From: Methylocapsa aurea | GTDB lineage: Bacteria; Pseudomonadota; Alphaproteobacteria; Rhizobiales; Beijerinckiaceae | NCBI RefSeq assembly: GCF_000746085.1 | Contig: NZ_JQKO01000004.1 | Location: forward strand, 62,001-126,000 | Length of the DNA: 64,000 nucleotides | Direction of reading: 5' to 3' | In this document: positions 16,599 through 31,026 of the stretch, piece by piece | Layout: every line of letters begins with the position of its first letter | Numbering within the stretch: the first letter of the stretch is position 1 | The notes under the pieces: generated by a model | The model's input: the letters and a program-made list of their open reading frames with translations, nothing else | Database searches by the model: none | What the model was told of the DNA's origin: nothing | Made by a program: the position numbers and the translations under genes

Positions 16599-17216
16599 GT
16601 GACGGACTTCGATCAAGCGAAGCGCGATAAGACACGTCGAACGCTGCTGAACTACATGGAACACCACGGTATCGGTGTGCCGCGCCTGGCCAAGCGCATT
16701 AGTGAAAGCACTGAGAGGGACTATAAAATTCCAGTAAAAACGCTTCAGCGCTTTCTGGGCGGGCATATTCGAACCAATGACCAGTACGTCGGGATATTCC
16801 ATCAGTTTGCGCAAATGAACGAGCCACCCGATCCTGTAATCAATGCTGGCGAAGCACTGGCCGCTTTTTATGGGGACAACGTCCGCCGTGATTATAGCGG
16901 CTCGTTTCACGCCACGACGCAGATGGGCGAAGCTTCAGAGGTCACGATTTCCAAAGAGGCAGGATTTTGGCGGGTCAAGGAAGTGACTGCGACCGGCGGG
17001 CGTTCTATCTTTGACGGAGTAGCGGTCTGTTCAGGTGAAGCGGCGTTTTTTGTGTTGAAAGACCGGCTTGCAGGCCTGCCGCGCACCTACACCGTATGGC
17101 CTCAAGCAGATGACAAGCTGTGTGGTTGCGGCACAACGGTCAATTTTGTGAGCTTCGATCCTGGCGCAGCCATGGTCCCGCAGACACACCCCTTCGAGAT
17201 AACACTGAGGAGATAG
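16599..17216 (+). CDS. Hypothetical protein with helical DNA-binding-like N terminus
   Basis: About 205 residues. The N-terminal 65 residues (RTLLNYMEHHGIGVPRLAKR, then IPVKTLQRFLGG) look like a helix-turn-helix of the Cro/XRE kind. The remainder is a beta-rich domain that I do not recognise. I place the start at a GTG preceded by GAGAGGA; an ATG at 16584 is an alternative. It ends 2 bp before the ankyrin gene, so the two form an operon divergent from the SprT/coupling unit. Base composition is more AT-rich than the neighbouring transfer genes. Confidence 0.6.
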   Translation: MTDFDQAKRDKTRRTLLNYMEHHGIGVPRLAKRISESTERDYKIPVKTLQRFLGGHIRTNDQYVGIFHQFAQMNEPPDPVINAGEALAAFYGDNVRRDYSGSFHATTQMGEASEVTISKEAGFWRVKEVTATGGRSIFDGVAVCSGEAAFFVLKDRLAGLPRTYTVWPQADDKLCGCGTTVNFVSFDPGAAMVPQTHPFEITLRR

Positions 17217-17218
17217 CC

Positions 17219-17617
17219 ATGCCAACCATCTCCGAGGATGAATTTCAAAAGCATCTTCGTGGCGCTTTCGTCACGAACCCGGCTGCCATGGACGCGACGG
17301 AACAAGCCAATCTCAAGCGAGTATTAGGCTATCTACTTCTCGACTCAGCCTACGACGGCATGTTTGATCGCGTTGTGGCGTTACTTGAAAGCGGGGCTTC
17401 CGTTGATGCCACGGACGAAAACACGGGAATGACAGCCCTGCACATCGCGGTCGGAAGGAATAACCTGGAAATTGCCCGGATACTTGTCGAGCGTGGCGCA
17501 TCGTTTATTGCGGACAAACAGGGGCGGATGCCTTCGACAGTCGCCGCCGAGTGCGAGGTAAGCGAAGAACTCTGCGATTTCATTGCGGAAGCCGAAGCCC
17601 GTGCCGAGGGCGTTTAA
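17219..17617 (+). CDS. Ankyrin-repeat protein
   Basis: The 132-residue protein contains two clear ankyrin units: residues about 45-75 (GMFDRVVALLESGASVDATDE) and 78-110 (TGMTALHIAVGRNN, then LEIARILVERGASF), plus a third partial one. AGGAGATAGCC precedes the ATG. It is coupled to the preceding helix-turn-helix-like gene. Short ankyrin proteins usually act as binding partners, often as inhibitors; the partner is probably the upstream protein, by inference. Confidence 0.8.
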   Translation: MPTISEDEFQKHLRGAFVTNPAAMDATEQANLKRVLGYLLLDSAYDGMFDRVVALLESGASVDATDENTGMTALHIAVGRNNLEIARILVERGASFIADKQGRMPSTVAAECEVSEELCDFIAEAEARAEGV

Positions 17618-20058: not shown

Positions 20059-20385
20059 TTATCTATGTGATGGGACGGGGATTGCCCGTTTTACATTCGG
20101 CCGCACTTTCACGTTTACATCGACGCGCTGATCCAGACGGCCCAGCACCGTCATCAGACGGTCAACCGTGAACCGCCCGATGTTCGCGTTGCGAATCCGG
20201 GAGAAATCGGCGGCAGCAATGCCCGTCAGTTCCGCAGCCTTGCGGACCGTCAGGTGTTTACGGTCTAACGCTTTAACAATCTGCGCCGCCAGGATGGCGC
20301 GTAGTTGCTCAAGATCGGAATTTGGCATGTCAAAGTCACGAAAGACATTGCCGCTCCCGTGTACCAGTTCAAAATCGTCGCTCAT
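20059..20385 (-). CDS. XRE-family antitoxin (HigA-like), copy 2
   Basis: The 108-residue paralogue of the antitoxin at 9650-9979 has the same GSGNVFRDF start and a helix-turn-helix with TVRKAAELTGIAAADFSRI, then RFTVDRL. Its start overlaps the toxin stop as ATGA. The DNA-recognition helix differs from copy 1 (IAAADFSRI against VSHSEFTRI), and the upstream palindromes differ, so the two modules probably do not cross-regulate. Confidence 0.85.
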   Translation of the reverse strand: MSDDFELVHGSGNVFRDFDMPNSDLEQLRAILAAQIVKALDRKHLTVRKAAELTGIAAADFSRIRNANIGRFTVDRLMTVLGRLDQRVDVNVKVRPNVKRAIPVPSHR

Positions 20386-20729
20386 CGCAGAGCCTCCTTT
20401 AGTCGTTTGATCCGTTCGCGGATCAGGTCAATTTCGGCTTTTGGCGTGCTGATCCCGCTTTTCGATTTCTTCTGGAACGCATGCACAATCCAGATATCGT
20501 CCGCCAGTTGCAGTGCGTAGACGACGCGGAAAGCGTCTCCTCGATGTTTCAGCGCCAGTTCCAGCACGCCGGATCCCAGACCTGTCAGCGGCTTCGCAAT
20601 GTCAGGGAATCCGCCCTCGGCAACGATGGTCAGGGCGCGGGCCATATCCTGTCGCGCCCCCAAAGGGAATTCCTCGAAATCTTTTCGGGCCGCTTTGATC
20701 CATGAGATCGGCCGGGTCTTGCGTGTCAT
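20382..20729 (-). CDS. RelE/ParE-superfamily toxin (Gp49-like), copy 2
   Basis: The 115-residue toxin shares ISWIKAARKDFEEFP, RGDAFR, VHAFQKKSKSGI and the C-terminal LIRERIKRLKEAL with copy 1. The start at 20729 lies five bases downstream of an operator-like palindrome. Two near-identical modules in one element suggest a duplication within the element or capture of related cassettes. Confidence 0.87.
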   Translation of the reverse strand: MTRKTRPISWIKAARKDFEEFPLGARQDMARALTIVAEGGFPDIAKPLTGLGSGVLELALKHRGDAFRVVYALQLADDIWIVHAFQKKSKSGISTPKAEIDLIRERIKRLKEALR

Positions 20730-21112: not shown

Positions 21113-21159
21113 TCTTTCTAAGATTGCAGTTTATCCAACAGATTTGCTATGAATATACT

Positions 21160-22374
21160 ATGGCAGACATAAGAAAAAGAACCGGAGCGAAGGGAACAAC
21201 GTATCAGGTCCGCTATCCCTCCAGCACCACGAAATCCGGCTACACCTATGCCACCTTCGACACGCTGAAGGAGGCGCGCGCTTTTCTGGAAAGTGGATCG
21301 TTACGGAAAAATGGGCGTGCGCGGTCAGGTGACGTCGGGACCGTCGCGGAGGCCACGGATATGTGGCTGCGTATATGCGAGAAGGAGGGGCTCAATGGCC
21401 GGGAGCCGGTCACGAATTATACCTACGGAAACTACGAGTACCGGGCCGGTTTCATCAAAGCCTATGAATGGCCGAAGCCGCTGGCCGATCTTACCGCGCC
21501 CGACATCGTGGCGTTCCGCTCTTGGCTGCTAAACGGTGAGGTGAGCCGTGTGGTCGCCAGCAAGGTTCTGTCGTCTTTTCACTCGGTCATGAAGGAGATG
21601 ACCATCCGAGGCCATCTCGCGCACAACCCGGCCGTGGGAATCTCGGTGCGAGCGGATTCGCGTTATCAGGAGCCCGTAAGCATACCGACGAAACAAGAGA
21701 TCATCGCTCTTCTGGCCGCCGCCGACCGGCTGGCCAATTCAAAGAACAAACTGACTGCAAAGACGTGGCGACGCTATCGCCCGATGCTCTACCTTGCAGT
21801 GGATTCTGGGATGCGGCCACAGGAATATCTCGCGGCCAGCCGGTCGGCTCTTCGCGGCAATGGCATCTATGTCGATCGTGCCATCGAAGGCGGCGGCAGC
21901 GAGATTTCAGTTACGAAGACACCAGCCGGGCGACGGTTCATAGACCTCAGCCCCGATACGCTCGATATGGTCGGCCATTACGCAAGCAACCATGCCGCCG
22001 ACAACAAATATGATCTGATCTTCCCGTCGGAGAACGGGCGCTGGCAGTCCCGCCGCAACTGGCAGCGGCGCGGGTTCGATATCGCCTGTGAGGAGGCCGG
22101 TCTGGTTGAGACCGTGACCGTGGACGGCGAGGATGTCGAACAGGCGAAGTACCGGCCCTACGATCTGCGGCACTTCTTTGCATCGATGCTGATCGAAAAG
22201 AAAACCAACCTGAAGAAGATACAGGCCTTGATGGGCCACACCAATATCGAGACAACCCTCAACGTCTACGGACATTTGCTCGAAGACAGCGACCGCGATA
22301 AAATAGGATCAGCAGGGTTGCTAAGCGGGATACTTGAGAAAAGTTGTGGCGAGTCTGTGGCGAGACAGGCCTAA
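21160..22374 (+). CDS. int: Tyrosine site-specific integrase
   Basis: The 404-residue protein has an N-terminal arm-binding domain, a SAM-like core-binding domain (about residues 60-160) and a catalytic domain with R219 (DSGMRPQEY), the box-II segment YDLRHFFAS with R337, H360 in LMGHTN, and the nucleophile Y370 in TTLNVYGHL. I use the ATG at 21160 (MADIRKRTG); an upstream frame adds twelve residues without a better signal. The gene ends 25 bp before a tRNA-Pro fragment, which marks its attachment site. Confidence 0.93.
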   Translation: MADIRKRTGAKGTTYQVRYPSSTTKSGYTYATFDTLKEARAFLESGSLRKNGRARSGDVGTVAEATDMWLRICEKEGLNGREPVTNYTYGNYEYRAGFIKAYEWPKPLADLTAPDIVAFRSWLLNGEVSRVVASKVLSSFHSVMKEMTIRGHLAHNPAVGISVRADSRYQEPVSIPTKQEIIALLAAADRLANSKNKLTAKTWRRYRPMLYLAVDSGMRPQEYLAASRSALRGNGIYVDRAIEGGGSEISVTKTPAGRRFIDLSPDTLDMVGHYASNHAADNKYDLIFPSENGRWQSRRNWQRRGFDIACEEAGLVETVTVDGEDVEQAKYRPYDLRHFFASMLIEKKTNLKKIQALMGHTNIETTLNVYGHLLEDSDRDKIGSAGLLSGILEKSCGESVARQA

Positions 22375-22595
22375 GGCCCGCAGAAACCAAGGACTTTTCT
22401 TGCATGGGGTGCAAGGGGTCGCAAGTTCGAATCTTGTCACTCCGACCATTATTAAATCAAAGACTTAGTTGAATATTATAGAAACAAATCGACCAACTCT
22501 ACGAAATTTGCCACAAAAATTCGGCCCGCTGAAACCCGCAGAAATCCGCGATTGTCCGTCTTGGTCCGTCTCAGCCTGTGGCGAGTTTGTGGCGA
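22345..22595. repeat. 19-bp direct repeats on both sides of the tRNA-Pro fragment
   Basis: TGTGGCGAG(T)(C/T)TGTGGCGA occurs at 22345-22363, in the 3' end of the integrase gene, and at 22577-22595, beyond the attachment fragment, with 18 of 19 bases equal. Both read CGE-x-VA in protein, so the second may be the tail of a lost integrase gene, or both may be arm-type integrase-binding sites. Confidence 0.6.
22399..22448 (+). other. attR: 3' fragment of tRNA-Pro(GGG), attachment site
   Basis: The 50 nt fold as the anticodon arm (CTTGC, loop ATGGGGT with anticodon GGG, GCAAG), the variable region, the T arm with TTCGAAT, the acceptor strand CACTCCG, A73 and CCA. The 5' half of the tRNA is absent. 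A tRNA 3' end next to an integrase is the usual product of integration into a tRNA gene. Confidence 0.9.
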
Positions 22596-22690
22596 ATTTT
22601 CACATTCCATCCCGCGAGCAAAGATCCGTCCGAGGCGGCTTGTTTCCCAAACCTTGCCCTTGATGGTTCGAACTGGCAGTCCACTCTAGT

Positions 22691-25600
22691 CTAGTTAGGA
22701 AGTTCAAACATAACCCCTACAACTTCCAGCAATCCGGTCAGGCGTGGAAAGCCAAGCTCACCCTCAAGGCTGAGAATTTCGCCCGGAGCTGTGCCATCCG
22801 GATTTATGCTCTCCAGCAGGATTATGGCCTCGTGCCGGCGTAGCCGCTTGAAGTATCGCGCGCCGTTCTCATCAACCGCAATGACGAGCCGTCCGTCCAT
22901 CTCACCGAGGATTTCAGGCCTCAGAGTGACGGGCTGAGTCATGATGAACTGACCATCAAGTGCTAGAGGCTCGGCGCTTCGCCCACTCACCTTGAACAGC
23001 TTTGCATTTTGAAGCAGCATGTTAACGACCGTTAGGTCGCTCAGCGCAACAAACTCAGCGTTTTCATCCTTCGGTGGCGTCGGAAGCCTGGACGAGGCGA
23101 ACAGAGTGCCTACGATCTTCCGAAGTGTTATCTTCTCCTGCGGTGCAATGACCGGCTGAGCGAGCGCATAGGGGTCCACGGATTGTCCAGTCAGGATGGC
23201 AATGTGCGGGTGAATTTCCGTTTCGTTGTATCGGCGCGCGAGCAACTGGTCTCCGAACGTCGTGACCACGAGGTTCCGCGCGTGCACTTTCGCATAGTTG
23301 CTGACGATGATGACGTCGCCGATGGCTGCCACCGGATCGAGCGTTCCTGCGGCGAGCTGATAGGCGTCGTGGTTGTGAAGTGTGATGTTGATTGACTGCG
23401 CCAGTTCCTCGACCGTTATTAGCCCATCTCCCGCGCGGCCATCAGACCTTGCTGCTGCCGCGATTCCTGTGTGCACGAGAGTAAGCTTCTTGAGCTCGAT
23501 GGCGTTGCCCACCGGCAGTGGAATAACATTGTCCATCCACGGAAAGAGGCGAGGTTCGCCCGAATATGCCTCGTATTCCGCATAGACTTTGAAGCATGTA
23601 TGTATCTGGGTTTGAAGGGTACTCTCCCAAAAGGACTTCACGTCGCCCGCTTGTGCCACGCCGATAGTGCCGTCAAATTTGTGGTGTGATTCATTGATAA
23701 TTTTCATCGGTTTCGCACCGCCGCCGCCCGTAATCGTATTGAGCAGCTTCTCGAACGAGGGCCGATTGAAGGGCGCAGCACTGGCCTCGCGCAGCTTCTT
23801 CATCAGAATTGCGAGCTGGTCCAGAGATAGGTCGCATACATCCGGTCCTTCGCAACGAAGCATGATTTTAAGCAAGTCTTCGCAATAGGTCCGGATCTCG
23901 AAGACATAATGATGGCCTAGCGCGTCATCCCCTTTATCCTTGGCTTCCTCGTAGCTTCGGGCAAGAGAGTTCCCGTTTATAACCGTCGCAACCTTGGATG
24001 CCGTATTCATCCTAACAACGAGACCCTGCTGACCTGTCAGTTTTTCGATATTCACGAGAAGTTGGAAGAATTGACGTTCATGGGTGACGACCAGAAGCTG
24101 CATGGCTTCCGTTGCGGTTGGGCTTGCATTGGCAAGTAGCGCGATTTCCTCGGCCCACTTTCTTTTATTGCGCGGATCGAATGTAACCTGCGGGTCGTCC
24201 AGCACAACGAGCGGAAATGGATTTGTGCCAAGCGACTCCAAGATTTGTTCCCTCAATGCGAGGATAAACGCCCATAGTATAGCGCGCAGCCAGGAACTGT
24301 TCGCAACAGTTGAAGCGTCAATTCGAATGCCATGATCGAAACTGGCAGATATCTGAACGGATTTCTTGCTCAGCGCCGCGTCTTCGAATGAGAGACGTTC
24401 TTTGAAATGGATGCGGTCAAGAACAGACTTCATCCGACCGGAAAGCGCGGAAATCGAGCCTGCAGTTTCGGTTGCAACCAGCGTGCGCAACTCTTTGAGC
24501 GGCTCCAATGCCCCTGCGATCGCGTCGCGGACAAGCTGCTGCGTGTGAATCACAAGCCATTTCTCCGCTTCTGTGGCGGCGTCCTTTAGCGCCTTGGTGA
24601 GGTCGTCGAGCGGGGCGGCTTTTTCGAGTGCCGCTTCTAGTGAAGCGAGTTTGCCTTCTAAGCTGTCTGTAGGAAACTTGCCCTCCGCATCGGCGATACC
24701 TTTGAGCGTATTCCAGCTATCCACGAAAGACTGTCGATTGCTGGCCCACCATTCTACGAGTGCCGCGATACGCTCTATGTTCTCGATGTATGAAAGGAGG
24801 TTCTTCGCGGCGGTAGGCGCGTCGGACGATGCACTGGTTTCTGTGTGCCCGAAAGTCGGCAGCTTGGCGGCGAGCGCGGTGGTGGTCGCGGTCACAAAAT
24901 TCGCCATTCCAGTCAGGACTGCGGAGAAAGGAGGCTCCTGCGCAAAGCGCTCCTTGGCGGCGGCTTCAAACGAGTCGCGAGGCTGCATGTCGGCGAGCAG
25001 CGTAAGATGCGCATTGATAGAGTCGGGAAGAAGATTTCGGATGTTCTTCTCAAGTTCCGCGCACGCATCTGTGAGCTTGCGCTCCGCCACTGCGGCAGCC
25101 TTCTTAAGTTCTTCCAACTCGGCTGCCAGGGCCCTGCGTTTGGCGCCTGAGAGCTTGCTCTCGCACAGAGGGCAGTCTGCATCTTCGTGAGCATGTTCCG
25201 CCGCAACGAAGAACTGCGATGCTAGAGCCTTCAACCGCAGCTTGGTATCTTCAGCTTGGCGCTGATCCCATGCGACAGCCTCCGCTAGTTTTGTCCTCGC
25301 TTCGGCAAGAGCCGCAGGTAGCTTTTGAAAGCCCGCGTCCATATGCGCCGTCTTCAATGCGGCCCAAGCATCGAATGTGGGGATGCCTTTGACATTCTGC
25401 TGAAGAATGCCCCGCGCCGCGCTGACTGCGTTCTTTATCTTGGCGCGGTCATCCGGCTTGCTCATATCGAGGTCGCTGGCGACGTCCGATGCGAGAATGC
25501 TCAGATGGGTGCCAGCAAGTGCGGAGGCACTCTCCGCTGTGTCTCGAAGCTCCTTGGCATAATCCGTGTCTTCACGTTTGCCGGTGATTTTGAGTTCAAA

Positions 25601-26563
25601 GGTGGCTTTAACAGCCTCCTCGGTAGCGCGCTTAAGCGCAAGTTCCATTTTCGCTTCAATCGCCTGAACACCTCTGTCCACTCCATACTTTAGAAAGCGC
25701 TTGGATTTGTGCGCGAAGTTCGCTGCGCCTTCCCCGATGTCGGCGAGTTGGTCGAGTCCGGTCAGAAGCTTGACGGCTTCGTAAATTGATTGGCTACGTT
25801 CGCCGAAACCGATGCGCGTTAATCGCGCTGGCATCAGCAGGCCGGTTTCGATGAGTTGCGGTGCTGACAGCAATACAGGAGCGATTTTCGTCTCGAACTT
25901 TGGCTCCGCAGATCGAGCAGCGACCAATCGCCTATATGCTTCCGCCGTATCGCCGTTCTCATTTTGGAACGTGAGACGAACCCACGCCTCCGCTGGGCCA
26001 CTTAGCTTCAAGGGCGTGGCAGGGTAAGAAACGGTGGGTGGCCAATCGCCGATTTGAACGCCAGAATCATTGAAGACGGGCATGCGCCGCCCGTCATCCT
26101 GGATGACGCCATCTTGGTCGCGGCACCGACACCCGGTAAGTGCCCAGACGATGGCACTGGCAATTGACGTTTTGCCTGAGCCGTTCTGGCCCTCAAGACA
26201 CCAATTCTCACCGTCGACGGCAAGCACGAAGTTGGGACCGTCGACAAGATTGAGGCCACCAAACCCGGCTGATTCCAGACGAATCAACCGCCACCTGCCA
26301 GTGTATACTGCCGTTGTTATCCCTTTGGCGGTAGCGGCAGGATCAAAGGATGTGTTCTGCCAAGCCGCAATCAAGCCATCGAACAACTCCTCTTTAGCGT
26401 CTGCGACCTTGCTCTGGTCACAAGACAGGAGGAAGTGCAAATTGCGTCGCGCGCCCGGCGTTGTAAGCTGAATATGACCCGCTTTAAGATCGCCGAATTT
26501 CGCCCAAGACAGAACATTTCCCGAAAGAAGGGTCTGAATAGCCTCGGATAATGGAACAGGCAT
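22691..26563 (-). CDS. SMC/Rad50-like ATPase with two C-terminal LexA/S24-fold domains
   Basis: A 1290-residue protein. The start at 26563 has AGGAGA eight bases upstream. Residues 100-140 hold Walker A (GQNGSGKTS, 125-133). Residues about 290-720 are long helices with a zinc-hook-like CPLC at 464-467. Residues 755-830 hold a signature-like helix, Walker B (LVVLDDPQVTFD, about 785-796) and an H-loop TH at 827-828. Then come two LexA-like domains. In the first (about 1060-1160) the Ser and Lys positions are Thr (AAGTLDP) and Ala/Arg. In the second (about 1185-1288) SGRSAEPLALDG gives S1196 and YFKRLRR gives K1239, as in S24 peptidases. It stands alone on an island. A DNA-damage or phage-responsive role is inferred; I do not know a described system with this layout. 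Confidence 0.85.
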   Translation of the reverse strand: MPVPLSEAIQTLLSGNVLSWAKFGDLKAGHIQLTTPGARRNLHFLLSCDQSKVADAKEELFDGLIAAWQNTSFDPAATAKGITTAVYTGRWRLIRLESAGFGGLNLVDGPNFVLAVDGENWCLEGQNGSGKTSIASAIVWALTGCRCRDQDGVIQDDGRRMPVFNDSGVQIGDWPPTVSYPATPLKLSGPAEAWVRLTFQNENGDTAEAYRRLVAARSAEPKFETKIAPVLLSAPQLIETGLLMPARLTRIGFGERSQSIYEAVKLLTGLDQLADIGEGAANFAHKSKRFLKYGVDRGVQAIEAKMELALKRATEEAVKATFELKITGKREDTDYAKELRDTAESASALAGTHLSILASDVASDLDMSKPDDRAKIKNAVSAARGILQQNVKGIPTFDAWAALKTAHMDAGFQKLPAALAEARTKLAEAVAWDQRQAEDTKLRLKALASQFFVAAEHAHEDADCPLCESKLSGAKRRALAAELEELKKAAAVAERKLTDACAELEKNIRNLLPDSINAHLTLLADMQPRDSFEAAAKERFAQEPPFSAVLTGMANFVTATTTALAAKLPTFGHTETSASSDAPTAAKNLLSYIENIERIAALVEWWASNRQSFVDSWNTLKGIADAEGKFPTDSLEGKLASLEAALEKAAPLDDLTKALKDAATEAEKWLVIHTQQLVRDAIAGALEPLKELRTLVATETAGSISALSGRMKSVLDRIHFKERLSFEDAALSKKSVQISASFDHGIRIDASTVANSSWLRAILWAFILALREQILESLGTNPFPLVVLDDPQVTFDPRNKRKWAEEIALLANASPTATEAMQLLVVTHERQFFQLLVNIEKLTGQQGLVVRMNTASKVATVINGNSLARSYEEAKDKGDDALGHHYVFEIRTYCEDLLKIMLRCEGPDVCDLSLDQLAILMKKLREASAAPFNRPSFEKLLNTITGGGGAKPMKIINESHHKFDGTIGVAQAGDVKSFWESTLQTQIHTCFKVYAEYEAYSGEPRLFPWMDNVIPLPVGNAIELKKLTLVHTGIAAAARSDGRAGDGLITVEELAQSINITLHNHDAYQLAAGTLDPVAAIGDVIIVSNYAKVHARNLVVTTFGDQLLARRYNETEIHPHIAILTGQSVDPYALAQPVIAPQEKITLRKIVGTLFASSRLPTPPKDENAEFVALSDLTVVNMLLQNAKLFKVSGRSAEPLALDGQFIMTQPVTLRPEILGEMDGRLVIAVDENGARYFKRLRRHEAIILLESINPDGTAPGEILSLEGELGFPRLTGLLEVVGVMFELPN

Positions 26564-26816
26564 TGTGTTCTCTCCTGCTCGCGAGAGTAGGACAGAAAGA
26601 CCCTTGCAATCCAGTAGAACTGTACGTTGCCAATTACGATTATGCAAAAGTTCTAAGTGCCGCCCTGCCATGACATGCCGATTGGCACGGGCCAGATTAA
26701 AGCGGGAGTTCACGGATATGATGTCGTGCAGAGGCCCAGCCAAATTGGCTCGCGCCAGAAAGCATCATAACAATGATACTTACTGCGCATTAATAGTGCG
26801 CGGCGCGCGGATGATG

Positions 26817-26984
26817 CTATGGCGTCGGCGGCTTCGGCCTGCGGGCATTAAGCGCCCGTCTCAGACTTTCGAGGGCCATCAGCGCTTCCTTGCGCTGCGC
26901 TTCGTAGAAGCCAATCGCGCGGACGGCTTGCTCAAAGAGTGCCTTCAGTTCGGCTTCGGTTCTGTATCTGGTCCGGTTCGTCAT
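26817..26984 (-). CDS. 55-residue helical protein
   Basis: A short gene with a good ribosome site (AAAGGA eight bases before the ATG). The product starts MTNRTRYRTEAELKALFEQ, is amphipathic and helical with many Arg and Glu, and ends in a Pro-rich tail. It lies 250 bp upstream of the ATPase on the same strand. It may be an independent small regulator or a partner of the ATPase; there is no family match that I recognise. An inverted repeat (GCGCA...TGCGC, about 26785-26801) lies between the two genes. Confidence 0.55.
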   Translation of the reverse strand: MTNRTRYRTEAELKALFEQAVRAIGFYEAQRKEALMALESLRRALNARRPKPPTP

Positions 26985-27248
26985 TGTCGTTCCTTTCGTC
27001 CATGTTGTTATTCACGGGCGTTGGAACAGCGGCGGGCCAAACCGCACCCTTCAGGGCCGCAACGTCAGAGGAGGAGCTTCACGCTTGCCACGAGGACAGC
27101 CGCTATAAATGACCGGCAAAGAACGAACACCGATGGACGGGGAACGGCAGGGGCAACTTTGACCAGTTCGCGACCAGGAATCCGGACTGCTGCGCCACTA
27201 CGTTGAGCATGACGGCACTTGACGCCGTTTTCCGACGAAGCAGTGCAT

Positions 27249-27434
27249 ATGAACCGGGCACCCGGCTCCGAGAAAAAGTCTGAAACCGCGCGCCGGCCGC
27301 TGGAAGCCAGCTCGGCTACGCCGGACCCCAGGCTCCTGGAATTCGTCAAATCGCTTGCGCGAGCGGCCGCGAGGGAGGATCATCGCCGGGCTGCCGAGGC
27401 AGCCTTGCCCCGGCCCGAACCGGACGAACAGTGA
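27249..27434 (+). CDS. Small protein preceding the serine recombinase
   Basis: The 61-residue protein has a charged N terminus and a helix with DPRLLEFVKSLARAAARED. Its stop overlaps the recombinase ATG (ATGA), which indicates translational coupling. Small helical proteins of this type sit before large serine recombinases in many alphaproteobacterial islands. A directionality or accessory role is inferred. A TTG at 27219 would add ten residues. Confidence 0.6.
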   Translation: MNRAPGSEKKSETARRPLEASSATPDPRLLEFVKSLARAAAREDHRRAAEAALPRPEPDEQ

Positions 27435-29050
27435 TGCGAACCGCCATTTACGCACGCTTCTCGACCGAGCTTCAGCAAGAGCGCTCCATCGAAGACCAGG
27501 TCGCGCTGTGCCGCGCCTATGCGGCAAAGAACGGCCTCGACGTTGTCGGCACGTTCGACGACCGGGCGCGTTCCGGCGCATCGATTTTGGGCCGCGACGG
27601 CCTGATGCGCATGATGGACGCGGCGCGGGACGGCGCTTTCGACGTCATCCTCGTCGAGGCGCTGGATCGCCTCTCGCGCGATCAGGAAGATCTCGCCGGA
27701 CTCTGGAAGCGCCTGAACTTTCTTGGCATCGAGCTCAGGGCCGTACACGACGGCAAGGCCGACCAGATCCAGATCGGCATACGCGGGCTTGTCGGGGCGC
27801 TCTATCTCCAGGACCTCGCCCACAAGGTCCGGCGCGGCATGTCCGGTGTGATCCGCGACGGGCGGCATGCCGGCGGCCGCGCTTATGGATACAGACCTAT
27901 GCCGGGGAAGCCCGGCGAATTGCAAATTGATGAGGACGAAGCCGCGATCGTCCGCGAGATATTCGAGTCCTATGTCGGCGGCAAAACGCCACGCGAGATC
28001 GCGGCCCGCCTGAACGCGCGCAAGGTTTCGCCGCCGCGCGGACGCTACTGGGCCGCTTCGACCCTGAACGGCTCGCTCACCCGTCATAACGGGATCATTC
28101 TCAATGACCTTTATGCGGGCCGTATCATCTGGAACAAGGTCCGCATGATTAAGGACCCGGACACGGGGAAGCGCGTCTCGCGCCCGAACCCGCAATCCGA
28201 GTGGCAGTCCATCGACGCGCCGCATCTGCGGATCGTCAGCCAGGACTTGTTCGAACAGGCTGGCGCGATCAAGCAGGAGCGCGGCGGGCCGGTTCCCAAC
28301 CAGACCCGCAAGCCCAAGCGCGTCCTCTCGGGTCTTTTGAAATGCGGCTGCTGCGGCGCCGGCATGTCCGTCAAGGACACAAGGAAAGGGCGGCAGCGCA
28401 TCCAGTGCACGCAAATGAAGGAGACGGGCGCCTGCGATCATCGTCGTGTTTACGATCTCGACACGATCGAGCGCACGGTCTTCGACGGCCTGAAAGCCAA
28501 TCTCACCACGCCCGATCTTATCGCGGCCTATGTCGAGACCTATAACGAAGAGCGCAAGCGGCTCGCGGCCAGCCTGATCGCCAACCGGTCGCGCATCGAA
28601 AAGCGGCTCGCGCGGGTCAAACGCGAGTTTGACCGTATCTTCCAGTCGTATGTGAAAGGATTCTCCGAAGAAGCGGAGGTTCGCGAACCGCTCGCTGAGC
28701 TGAGGGCCGAGCGGAAGCAGCTCGAAGCCGATCTTGCCAGTGCGGAGAAGCCGCCTGAGACCGTGGCGCTTCATCCGACGGCTCTTGCCCGCTATCGCCA
28801 GCAGGTCGAGGACCTTCAGAAAGCCCTGTCGTCAGAAAGTTTAGGCGACGATCGCGAGCCCATCCGGGCGTTGCGGGAGTTGGTTGCTTCCATCATCGTG
28901 CTGCCCACGCCGCCTGGCGCGCCCATAGAAATCGAAGTGCGAGGCCGGCTCGCCGCGCTCATCGGCCATGAGGTATTTCCGGCAGCCCGAATGTGGGGGG
29001 GAAAGGTGGTAGCGGAGGAGGGACTCGAACCCCCGACACAAGGATTATGA
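27431..29050 (+). CDS. Large serine recombinase (integrase)
   Basis: The 539-residue protein starts with the resolvase domain (TAIYARFSTELQQERS, S10 as nucleophile; LDRLSRDQEDLAGL), followed by the recombinase domain (GYRPMPGKPGELQIDEDEA), a zinc ribbon with KCGCCGAGM and GACDHRR, and a coiled-coil region. The last codons (EEGLEPPTQGL) are the antisense reading of the T and anticodon arms of tRNA-Met. This overlap shows that the recombination site is in the tRNA 3' end and that the reading frame is completed by the target. The gene appears intact. Confidence 0.92.
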   Translation: MMRTAIYARFSTELQQERSIEDQVALCRAYAAKNGLDVVGTFDDRARSGASILGRDGLMRMMDAARDGAFDVILVEALDRLSRDQEDLAGLWKRLNFLGIELRAVHDGKADQIQIGIRGLVGALYLQDLAHKVRRGMSGVIRDGRHAGGRAYGYRPMPGKPGELQIDEDEAAIVREIFESYVGGKTPREIAARLNARKVSPPRGRYWAASTLNGSLTRHNGIILNDLYAGRIIWNKVRMIKDPDTGKRVSRPNPQSEWQSIDAPHLRIVSQDLFEQAGAIKQERGGPVPNQTRKPKRVLSGLLKCGCCGAGMSVKDTRKGRQRIQCTQMKETGACDHRRVYDLDTIERTVFDGLKANLTTPDLIAAYVETYNEERKRLAASLIANRSRIEKRLARVKREFDRIFQSYVKGFSEEAEVREPLAELRAERKQLEADLASAEKPPETVALHPTALARYRQQVEDLQKALSSESLGDDREPIRALRELVASIIVLPTPPGAPIEIEVRGRLAALIGHEVFPAARMWGGKVVAEEGLEPPTQGL

Positions 29051-29083
29051 TTCCTCTGCTCTAGCCGGCTGAGCTACTCCGCC
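29007..29083 (-). tRNA. tRNA-Met (CAU)
   Basis: The 77-nt minus-strand gene includes an encoded CCA. The acceptor stem GGCGGAG pairs with CTCCGCT (G1-U72 wobble), the D arm is GCTC...GAGC, the anticodon stem GAGGA/TCCTT frames loop ATCATAA with anticodon CAT, and the T arm has GGGGGTTCGAGTCCC. The weak first pair and lack of an initiator-type mismatch fit an elongator Met tRNA. Its 3' end overlaps the serine recombinase. Confidence 0.93.
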
Positions 29084-30587: not shown

Positions 30588-30980
30588 ACCCGCTCCGAGT
30601 CAGGCGCCGATCGGCTCTCTTCAACAATGTAACTATACAAAGAGCTAGACTCTGCTCTCCGCCTGGATCGGAAAGCGCTCTCGAAGCGCCTGCAGGACGC
30701 GCTCGGCGCGGCCGGACCCAACGCTGATTTTGGGTCGGATCCTATCGACCAAATGTTTTCGTTCGATCTGGATGCGCCGCCCCCGCGCGGTTGACTTAAA
30801 TTGAATCGCTCTTGCGCTCGATGGCTTCGCCGCCGCGCCCCATCTTATCTAAAAAAATTCGGCGCCGTTTCCAAGATTGCGCCGCGCAGGTGGAAGGCCG
30901 TGTTTATGAGACATGCCAAAACGCTTTCCGATCGAATGGAATCATTCGATCGATCAGAAATCGCTCCAGCATAAAAGTGT
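30588..30980. other. Intergenic region with degenerate palindromic repeats
   Basis: About 390 bp without a supported gene. It contains AGCGCTCT-type fragments near 30670 and CGCTTTCCGATCGAATGGAA near 30923 that match the repeat family at 42311, 44728 and 50983. The frames that cross it are not convincing. Confidence 0.5.
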
Positions 30981-31026
30981 TTGAGCATAGTCTCATCGAA
31001 CAGCTGTTCGATGAGACTATGCTCAA
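30981..31026. repeat. 46-bp perfect palindrome
   Basis: Two 23-bp arms with no spacer; the centre CAGCTG lies at 31001-31006, and the arm begins TTGAGCATAGTCTCATCG. There is no T run, so it is not a simple terminator. It is attached to a member of the intergenic repeat family and lies 130 bp before the L,D-transpeptidase gene. Confidence 0.92.

What the first reader, a model, noticed from the sequence alone, without database searches (positions are those of the whole stretch)
22691..26563. SMC/Rad50-like ATPase fused to two LexA-fold domains on a recombinase island
One gene encodes an ABC-type head (Walker A at 125-133, Walker B near 785), a helical arm with a CPLC zinc-hook, and two C-terminal domains that follow the LexA/UmuD (S24) pattern. 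The first has lost both catalytic positions. The second keeps Ser1196 (GRSAEP) and Lys1239 (FKRL), 43 residues apart; LexA and UmuD have a spacing near 37. Tandem inactive and active LexA domains on a DNA-sensing ATPase suggest that DNA binding is coupled to self-cleavage or cleavage of a partner. The gene stands alone between two integration sites, a typical place for anti-phage systems. I do not recognise a described system with this layout.
Basis: partly seen in the sequence, partly recalled or inferred. Interest (0 to 1): 0.85.

Follow-up and report, generated by a model that had tools for sequence, protein, structure and literature searches.

The report
RloC-like defence ATPase with LexA-type tail
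A single mobile bacterial gene appears to join a DNA-sensing Rad50-like motor, a likely RNA-cutting domain and two LexA-like domains, one with an intact protease site, suggesting an anti-virus defence protein of a kind not found in the databases and papers searched.

Summary
The gene (22691-26563, minus strand, 1290 aa) has a Rad50-like ATPase head, a CxxC zinc hook and two tandem LexA-fold domains. Fold comparison, profile searches and comparison with the host's own S24 proteins support the LexA assignment. Ser1196 and Lys1239 are kept in 23 of 23 in-frame relatives down to about 20% identity. The first domain has Thr/Ser and Arg at those places. The Ser-Lys spacing is not odd for S24 domains.

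Its most conserved residues are Arg-x3-Glu ... His-His, the catalytic pattern of the anticodon nuclease RloC. A profile alignment to 12 RloC-like proteins runs from the hook to that His-His (E 1e-12). Most of that score comes from the ATPase part; the helical domain adds to it only in true column order. So this is best read as an RloC-like ATPase-nuclease with an added LexA-type protease module.

Context supports defence: the gene fills a cargo slot of a mobile element, where genus relatives carry an Argonaute or an IetS-like protease. Other family members lie beside Shedu, DRT, IetAS or AbiE.

Nuclease activity, proteolysis and immunity are inferred, not shown. I rate it a new variant of a known kind.

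The parts
22691..26563 (-). family gene, 1290 aa, ATG start with upstream AGGAGA
26294..26563 (-). N-terminal segment 1-90, function unknown
   Evidence: two invariant residues (L12, G15)
26165..26191 (-). Walker A, residues 125-133 (GQNGSGKTS)
   Evidence: G125, G130, K131 25/25
25163..25174 (-). zinc hook CPLC, residues 464-467
   Evidence: C464 and C467 25/25; Pfam Rad50_zn_hook 0.0026
24284..24301 (-). signature-like motif N755-x-S757-x-L-R760
   Evidence: N755 and S757 25/25; L759 and R760 invariant in 23 rows
24176..24211 (-). Walker B LDDPQ (789-792) and D-loop; Asp in place of the usual catalytic Glu (recalled consensus)
   Evidence: 25/25
23564..23950 (-). helical domain 872-1000, RloC/PrrC-like nuclease (HEPN-type) candidate
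   Evidence: profile alignment to RloC-like proteins; motif
23879..23893 (-). Arg891-x3-Glu895 of the putative nuclease triad
   Evidence: invariant in 23 of 23 rows, and in 12 of 12 rows of A5
23681..23686 (-). His960-His961 of the putative nuclease triad
   Evidence: 25/25
23384..23563 (-). linker 1001-1060, low model confidence; holds the stretch that aligns with the LexA cleavage region
   Evidence: pLDDT about 28-36 over residues 1000-1049; alignment to host LexA
23099..23383 (-). LexA-fold domain 1 (1061-1155), degenerate: T1074 and R1110
   Evidence: PDB profile hit to LexA E 0.0014
22694..23098 (-). LexA-fold domain 2 (1156-1290) with Ser-Lys dyad
   Evidence: Pfam S24; hhalign to two host S24 regulators P 1.1e-6 and 3.5e-6
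22976..22978 (-). Ser1196
   Evidence: 23/23
22847..22849 (-). Lys1239
   Evidence: 23/23
22600..26817 (.). cargo slot of the mobile element; edges conserved in G1137 (and, on separate contigs, in G1140), contents different
21124..22374 (+). tyrosine recombinase bordering the slot
   Evidence: Pfam Phage_integrase 2.6e-16
27431..29050 (+). large serine recombinase bordering the slot; its end overlaps a tRNA-Met gene (29007-29083, minus)

Best explanation
A one-gene defence protein: an RloC-like ATPase-nuclease carrying an added, built-in LexA-type protease module. The Rad50-like heads and zinc-hooked arms would sense invading DNA (ends or unusual structures) and change state on ATP binding. 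That would release the adjacent RNase-type domain (Arg-x3-Glu...His-His), which would disable translation and stop the infection. The tandem LexA domains would act as a second lock or timer: the active domain (S1196/K1239), paired with its inactive twin, would cut the disordered linker between nuclease and LexA domains, or another protein, once the heads engage DNA or a RecA filament forms. Shown here: architecture, conservation of all active-site candidates, mobility, defence neighbourhood. Inferred: DNA sensing, RNA cutting, proteolysis, immunity and their order.
For: Family-to-RloC-like profile alignment: prob 97.8, E 9.7e-13, 493 columns collinear from hook to His-His, pairing hook, Walker B, Arg, Glu and His-His. 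The helical domain adds to this only in true order: score 120.6, against 107.1 with the alignment stopping before it in 20 of 20 shuffles of the RloC-like C-terminal columns. A two-row SbcC-like profile reaches 1.1e-6 and a three-row YhaN-like one 0.0016, both confined to the first ATPase lobe. The RloC triad Arg-x3-Glu-x36-52-His was shown by mutation in RloC (PMC2610378, abstract and passages). In 12 diverse rows the invariant columns of the helical domain are only R, E, H, H. Ser-Lys dyad 23/23. LexA fold. Domains 1 and 2 are related: hhalign P 1.9e-7. Purifying selection: dN/dS 0.03-0.20 in both LexA domains in the in-frame pairs where it could be computed. The slot holds pAgo in G1137, and an IetS-like protease lies at the slot edge in G1140. 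Strong hits (E below 1e-20) to PADLOC models in 7 of the 11 loci whose neighbours I picked for scanning.
Against: Most of the RloC-like match rests on the hook and ATPase: without the helical domain it is still 1.9e-11. The helical domain alone is weak (score 18.3; 1 of 100 column shuffles scored higher), has no Pfam hit in the window protein and only chance-level ones in other rows, and no relevant PDB hit. As single sequences an SbcC-like protein scored higher (51.2) than three RloC-like ones (46.1, 38.1, 37.8). The comparison proteins are called RloC-like on their motifs; no call names them RloC. The Glu-to-His distance is 63-71 against 50-58 in them and 37-53 by the published motif. No scissile site is conserved, so self-cleavage is a guess. 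The model of residues 91-1290 was poor (pLDDT 50.6). No activity was measured.
Confidence: 0.5

Rival explanations
1. The LexA-type domain itself is the effector: a Lamassu-like sensor-protease in which DNA binding turns on Ser-Lys proteolysis of cell proteins, and the helical domain is only structural.
For: Ser-Lys dyad 23/23. ATPase-plus-protease defence is precedented: IetAS lies beside L015. PADLOC's best hit is an LmuB model, 4.2e-15. The reviewed Lamassu effectors include proteases (PMC10586767, passages). The helical domain alone shows no significant match to a nuclease family.
Against: The nuclease-like triad residues are as invariant as the dyad. LmuB models also match neighbouring YhaN-like and SbcC-like proteins (9.2e-11, 5.3e-26), so those hits are not specific. 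S24 domains known to me cut themselves or close partners, not many targets (recalled).
Confidence: 0.2
2. A DNA-repair or plasmid-maintenance protein working with Mre11/SbcD-type nucleases, regulated by RecA through its LexA domains.
For: SbcD/YhaO-like genes in the flanks of 8 of 31 family loci, against about 0.09 expected from their density in 20 relatives. The SbcD-SbcC-like pair follows the family gene by 86 bases in L010, and a YhaO-YhaN-like pair precedes it by about 100 bases in L020.
Against: No such gene was clustered in the flanks of the other 23 of 31 loci, the window's included; two SbcD types and varied orientations; flanks are mobile and defence-rich. SOS-box-like motifs were found upstream of 2 of 35 family ORFs or ORF pieces.
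Confidence: 0.12
3. The second LexA domain is catalytically silent and serves as a docking or dimer module only.
For: No conserved cleavage site; the first LexA domain is already degenerate.
Against: Ser and Lys unchanged in 23 of 23 rows at about 20% identity, while only 65 of 1164 columns are invariant.
Confidence: 0.1

Closest known systems
RloC / PrrC anticodon nucleases (ABC-HEPN)
   Same: Rad50-like ATPase interrupted by coiled coil and CxxC hook, then a helical domain with Arg-x3-Glu...His; mobile distribution
   Different: about 1290 aa against roughly 750-794 aa in the 12 RloC-like proteins used; extra N-terminal 90 aa; tandem LexA domains; longer Glu-His distance; RNase activity untested
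Lamassu LmuB (with LmuA/LmuC)
   Same: Rad50-like ATPase with hook, changed catalytic residue in Walker B, defence islands
   Different: no LmuA or LmuC match among 10 window neighbours; one large gene; the change is to Asp, not Gln; LmuB models match other Rad50-like proteins too
LexA / CI / UmuD family (peptidase S24)
   Same: fold and Ser-Lys dyad of domain 2; stretch like the LexA cleavage region before domain 1
   Different: no HTH hit in the Pfam scan; tandem with a degenerate copy; fused to an ATPase; no conserved A-G or C-G cut site
Rad50 / SbcC
   Same: ATPase halves and zinc hook
   Different: Asp at the usual catalytic Glu, His or Asn in the switch position (12 H, 12 N, 1 Y of 25); C-terminal nuclease-like and LexA domains

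Membership tests
RloC/PrrC | ABC ATPase motifs with coiled-coil/CxxC hook insert | tested here: met
RloC/PrrC | C-terminal Arg-x3-Glu-xn-His triad | tested here: met
   R and E 23/23, H-H 25/25; but Glu-His distance 63-71, longer than the published x36-52
RloC/PrrC | HEPN-type fold of that domain | tested here: inconclusive
   alignment extends through the domain only in true column order (0 of 20 shuffles), but the domain alone is near shuffle level, without relevant Pfam or PDB hits; no structure comparison of this domain by itself was made
RloC/PrrC | tRNA cleavage | not testable with these tools
   needs bench work
Lamassu | LmuB partnered by LmuA and often LmuC | tested here: not met
   10 window neighbours scanned against PADLOC, none matches LmuA or LmuC at 0.001; one relative's neighbour (L016) matches an LmuA model weakly, 1.3e-6
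Lamassu | specific match to LmuB models | tested here: inconclusive
   4.2e-15, but the same models match YhaN-like and SbcC-like proteins
Peptidase S24 | LexA-like fold | tested here: met
Peptidase S24 | Ser-Lys dyad | tested here: met
   domain 2, 23/23; domain 1 fails
Peptidase S24 | dyad close in space | not tested
   model coordinates not available to me
Peptidase S24 | autocleavage site (Ala-Gly or Cys-Gly, recalled; not required of every S24 protein) | tested here: inconclusive
   no dipeptide conserved across the family; some rows have AGAPL before domain 1

The most novel reading that the evidence does not exclude
A single protein holds its own co-protease: the Rad50-like heads do for the attached LexA domain what the RecA filament does for LexA, so that DNA sensing triggers an internal cut that frees a tRNA nuclease. 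This would be an SOS-like switch turned into a defence trigger independent of RecA.
Probability: 0.25. Interest if true: 0.88.

Novelty: new variant of a known kind. Interest (0 to 1): 0.68.

Why it matters
It would add a proteolytic LexA-type switch to the DNA-damage-responsive RloC class, join two phage-defence ideas (Rad50-like sensing, translation shut-off) to SOS-style autoproteolysis in one chain, and give a testable link between them. The family is sparse but mobile, seen mainly in Alphaproteobacteria, with members in Gammaproteobacteria and one Nitrospirota assembly, so a confirmed function would name genes now annotated only as AAA or ATP-binding proteins or as hypothetical.

Tried and rejected
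The phage records gave no relatives, nor did one viral-contig scan with the family; a second viral scan with an RloC-like query was also empty. The model of residues 91-1290 was poor and unused. Lamassu was considered first because of the PADLOC hits, and set aside as non-specific. A repeat of the tRNA-Met end was sought in the window and not found. SOS-box-like motifs: upstream of 2 of 35 family ORFs or pieces, W (measured from its longer TTG frame) and L040. Comparison of the helical domain to one RloC-like protein was negative and to four not significant; with 12 proteins the domain alone stayed weak, while the whole-protein profile was strong. For that profile I used 4 proteins from genome searches and 8 picked out of 42 plasmid records, 20 of them listed, most found with one query, so their shared motif is partly by descent; two entered shortened at an internal Met (586 and 673 aa). 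I left out two other AAA_13 matches: L076, without hook or His-His, and L074, a fragment with Arg-x3-Glu and Ser-His. My first comparison with host S24 proteins used wrong reading frames and was redone. My first alignment script used a wrong protein file and was redone. In the PDB profile search only domain 1, not domain 2, matched LexA. Paper searches on SMC or ABC ATPase with LexA/S24 and defence show no paper with this architecture among the rows listed; and 77 more papers held the terms than were listed (178, 17, 92 and 514 against 20, 15, 10 and 20). Six papers were read by abstract or passages only; the 2020 ABC ATPase classification paper is not held, so it is unchecked.
Full report
What is there. 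The gene at 22691-26563 on the minus strand encodes 1290 residues from an ATG shared with its closest relatives. Pfam finds an ABC-type ATPase N-terminal part, a sub-threshold Rad50 hook and, at 1184-1256, Peptidase_S24 just below its curated cut-off. NCBIfam gives only weak Rad50/RecF-like matches far below their cut-offs. Of ten diverse members, seven match S24 at E 0.1 or better, ten match AAA_23 and two the hook model.

The family. Whole-genome searches, whose samples overlap and include the window's own genome, gave 4 of 289 in the class (one protein, E 1e-10), and with a profile at E 1e-20 11 of 397 in the order, 4 of 398 in the phylum, 2 of 149 in the family and 3 of 15 in the genus. 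None was found in the phage records. A tree on the head region places the window protein with a Sphingomonas plasmid protein and puts a Nitrospirota assembly protein inside the same group; the tool warns of long branches. Two nearly identical copies (L044, L048) lie in genomes of different families. This is a horizontally moving, rare gene.

Active sites. I aligned 25 family ORFs of at least 1180 aa. Walker A, the hook cysteines and the DDPQ Walker B are kept in 25 of 25. Asp stands where ABC ATPases usually have Glu (recalled); Lamassu LmuB is reported to carry Gln there (PMC10586767, passages). The switch position is His in 12, Asn in 12 and Tyr in 1. Slow or absent ATP hydrolysis is therefore plausible (inference). 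Ser1196, Lys1239 and Arg1240 are kept in 23 of 23 rows with the region in frame; I left out L015 and L025 because their S24 part lies in a second ORF, which also has Ser and Lys. 65 of 1164 ungapped columns are invariant in the 23 rows. Ser-Lys spacing is 42-47. In domain 1 the Ser place is Thr 19, Ser 3, Asn 1 of 23 and the Lys place is Arg in all 23. dN/dS by simple counting is 0.03-0.20 in both LexA domains for the in-frame pairs where it could be computed; L010/L015 gave 0.66 in domain 1, where L015 changes frame.

LexA fold. A profile of residues 880-1290 finds LexA among solved structures through domain 1 (E 0.0014); domain 2 did not match LexA in that search. The AlphaFold2 model of that region (9 rows, mean pLDDT 72, pTM 0.56) matches LexA chains at Foldseek probability 1.00; E-values run from 0.006 to about 0.06, none at 0.001 or better, and the top row by E-value is an unrelated OspA variant at probability 0.20. 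Against viral models, LexA-like proteins, CI repressors and HTH regulators make up most named rows of high probability; of three rows at 0.001 or better one is a low-probability trypsin-like protein. Domain 2 aligns with two of the host's S24 regulators (P 1.1e-6 and 3.5e-6) and, with Ser and Lys paired, with host LexA (P 3.4e-4); scores were 44, 41 and 30 against a maximum of 22 in 60 shuffles of LexA. Domain 1 against LexA scores 26 against a shuffle maximum of 19, pairing its N-terminal side with the LexA cleavage region; against the other two host proteins it scores 22 and 23. Domains 1 and 2 resemble each other (P 1.9e-7). I could not measure the Ser-Lys distance.

The missed domain. Between ATPase and LexA domains lies a helical domain (872-1000). 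In 12 diverse rows its only invariant residues are Arg891, Glu895, His960 and His961; in the 23-row alignment L867 and V975, in or near it, are invariant too. RloC, an anticodon nuclease with a Rad50-like ATPase and zinc hook, has the motif Arg-x3-Glu-x36-52-His, and mutating any of the three abolished its activity (PMC2610378, abstract and passages). The HEPN survey describes RloC and PrrC as SbcC/Rad50-like ATPases with a C-terminal HEPN RNase, with RloC apparently activated on DNA damage (PMC3710099, passages). I collected 12 proteins that I call RloC-like on their motifs; all 12 have Arg, Glu and His-His. Profile against profile, the family aligns to them over 493 columns (prob 97.8, E 9.7e-13, score 120.6) in one collinear stretch in which hook, Walker B, Arg, Glu and His-His all pair.

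Controls on that alignment. Cut off before the helical domain, the family still matches at 1.9e-11, so most of the signal is hook and ATPase. With the RloC-like C-terminal columns shuffled, 20 of 20 alignments stop before the triad at score 107, so the domain adds about 13.5 only in true order. A two-row SbcC-like profile gives 1.1e-6 over 41 columns at Walker A and a three-row YhaN-like one 0.0016 over 119 columns of the first lobe; these profiles are shallower than the 12-row one (all). As single sequences, the SbcC-like protein scores 51.2 at Walker A, above three RloC-like ones (46.1, 38.1, 37.8), of which all lie in the second ATPase lobe or beyond and one reaches His-His. The helical domain alone is weak: score 18.3, with 1 of 100 column shuffles higher; with one and four RloC-like proteins it was negative or not significant. 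Pfam and PDB profile searches of the domain gave nothing relevant. I therefore hold kinship to RloC-like ATPases as well supported and the nuclease reading of the domain as likely but open.

Context. The window gene lies alone between a tyrosine recombinase and a large serine recombinase, in an element with relaxase and MobC genes and a gene that looks like TraG/VirD4 by eye. In genus relative G1137 the slot edges (window 22507-22599 and 26818-27291) are 88% and 92% identical, and between them lie a SIR2-type Argonaute (PADLOC E 0) and a HipA gene with an HTH gene. In G1140 the right edge (26818-28887, 89%) is preceded by an IetS-like subtilase (1.4e-34); its left edge is on another contig. 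Around relatives I chose 20 neighbouring proteins from 11 loci for PADLOC; 7 of the 11 loci gave E below 1e-20: DRT with SLATT (L012), PDC-S37 (L022), IetAS (L015), AbiE (L021, L010), Shedu (L014), Vsr with NERD-helicase (L048). L020, L016 and L007 gave weaker hits and L043 none. These neighbours were chosen by eye and are not a full survey. Of 10 window neighbours one gave a weak hit. SbcD/Mre11-like genes occur in the flanks of 8 of 31 loci; from 17 matches in 20 relatives (about 76 Mb) and 395 kb of flank about 0.09 would be expected, though loci are not independent and thresholds differ.

Mechanism. The best-supported reading is an RloC-like sensor-nuclease with a LexA-type module added at its end. 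ATP binding and DNA contact at the heads would free the RNase domain; the LexA module, separated by a low-confidence linker (pLDDT about 30), would control or time this by one cut. A cut site is not conserved, so the place and even the existence of self-cleavage are open. The main rival makes the protease the effector.

Novelty. No match in the three libraries scanned covers the whole protein, and the paper searches named in Tried and rejected show no such architecture among the rows listed. Subscription papers were not searchable and the 2020 ABC ATPase classification is not held, so an existing description cannot be excluded. I class it as a new variant of the ABC-nuclease defence kind.

Noticed in passing
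window 22600-26817 against L057, L059 and L060: The slot is exchangeable cargo: a SIR2-type Argonaute plus HipA and HTH genes in G1137, an IetS-like subtilase at the slot edge in G1140.
   Followed up: yes
L008, L010, L013, L015, L020, L021, L022, L047: SbcD/YhaO-like nuclease genes, in several cases with an SbcC/YhaN-like ATPase, recur in the flanks of the family gene; directly beside it on the same strand in L010 and, as a pair, in L020.
   Followed up: partly
window 20059-20729: A toxin-antitoxin-like pair (Gp49-type protein 1.5e-19 and HTH_37 protein 2.7e-20) near the same element's integrase.
   Followed up: no
window 30922-31003: A repeat of about 80 bases present many times in this genome and in genus relatives; a stretch overlapping it (30981-31026) also matches its own reverse complement, so it may form a hairpin.
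   Followed up: no
window 17120-17617: Ankyrin-like small protein (by eye) with a weak match to candidate defence model PDC-M72A (1.6e-7).
   Followed up: no
L044 and L048: Nearly identical family genes with the same flanking integrase in genomes of two different families, a recent transfer.
   Followed up: partly
L043 1652-6134: Three co-directed unknown genes upstream of a family member, the first looking like a GHKL-type ATPase by eye; no PADLOC match.
   Followed up: no
L066 (G1140:C193) and G1140:C287: In genus relative G1140 pieces of a family gene lie at contig ends near SbcD/YhaO-like matches.
   Followed up: no
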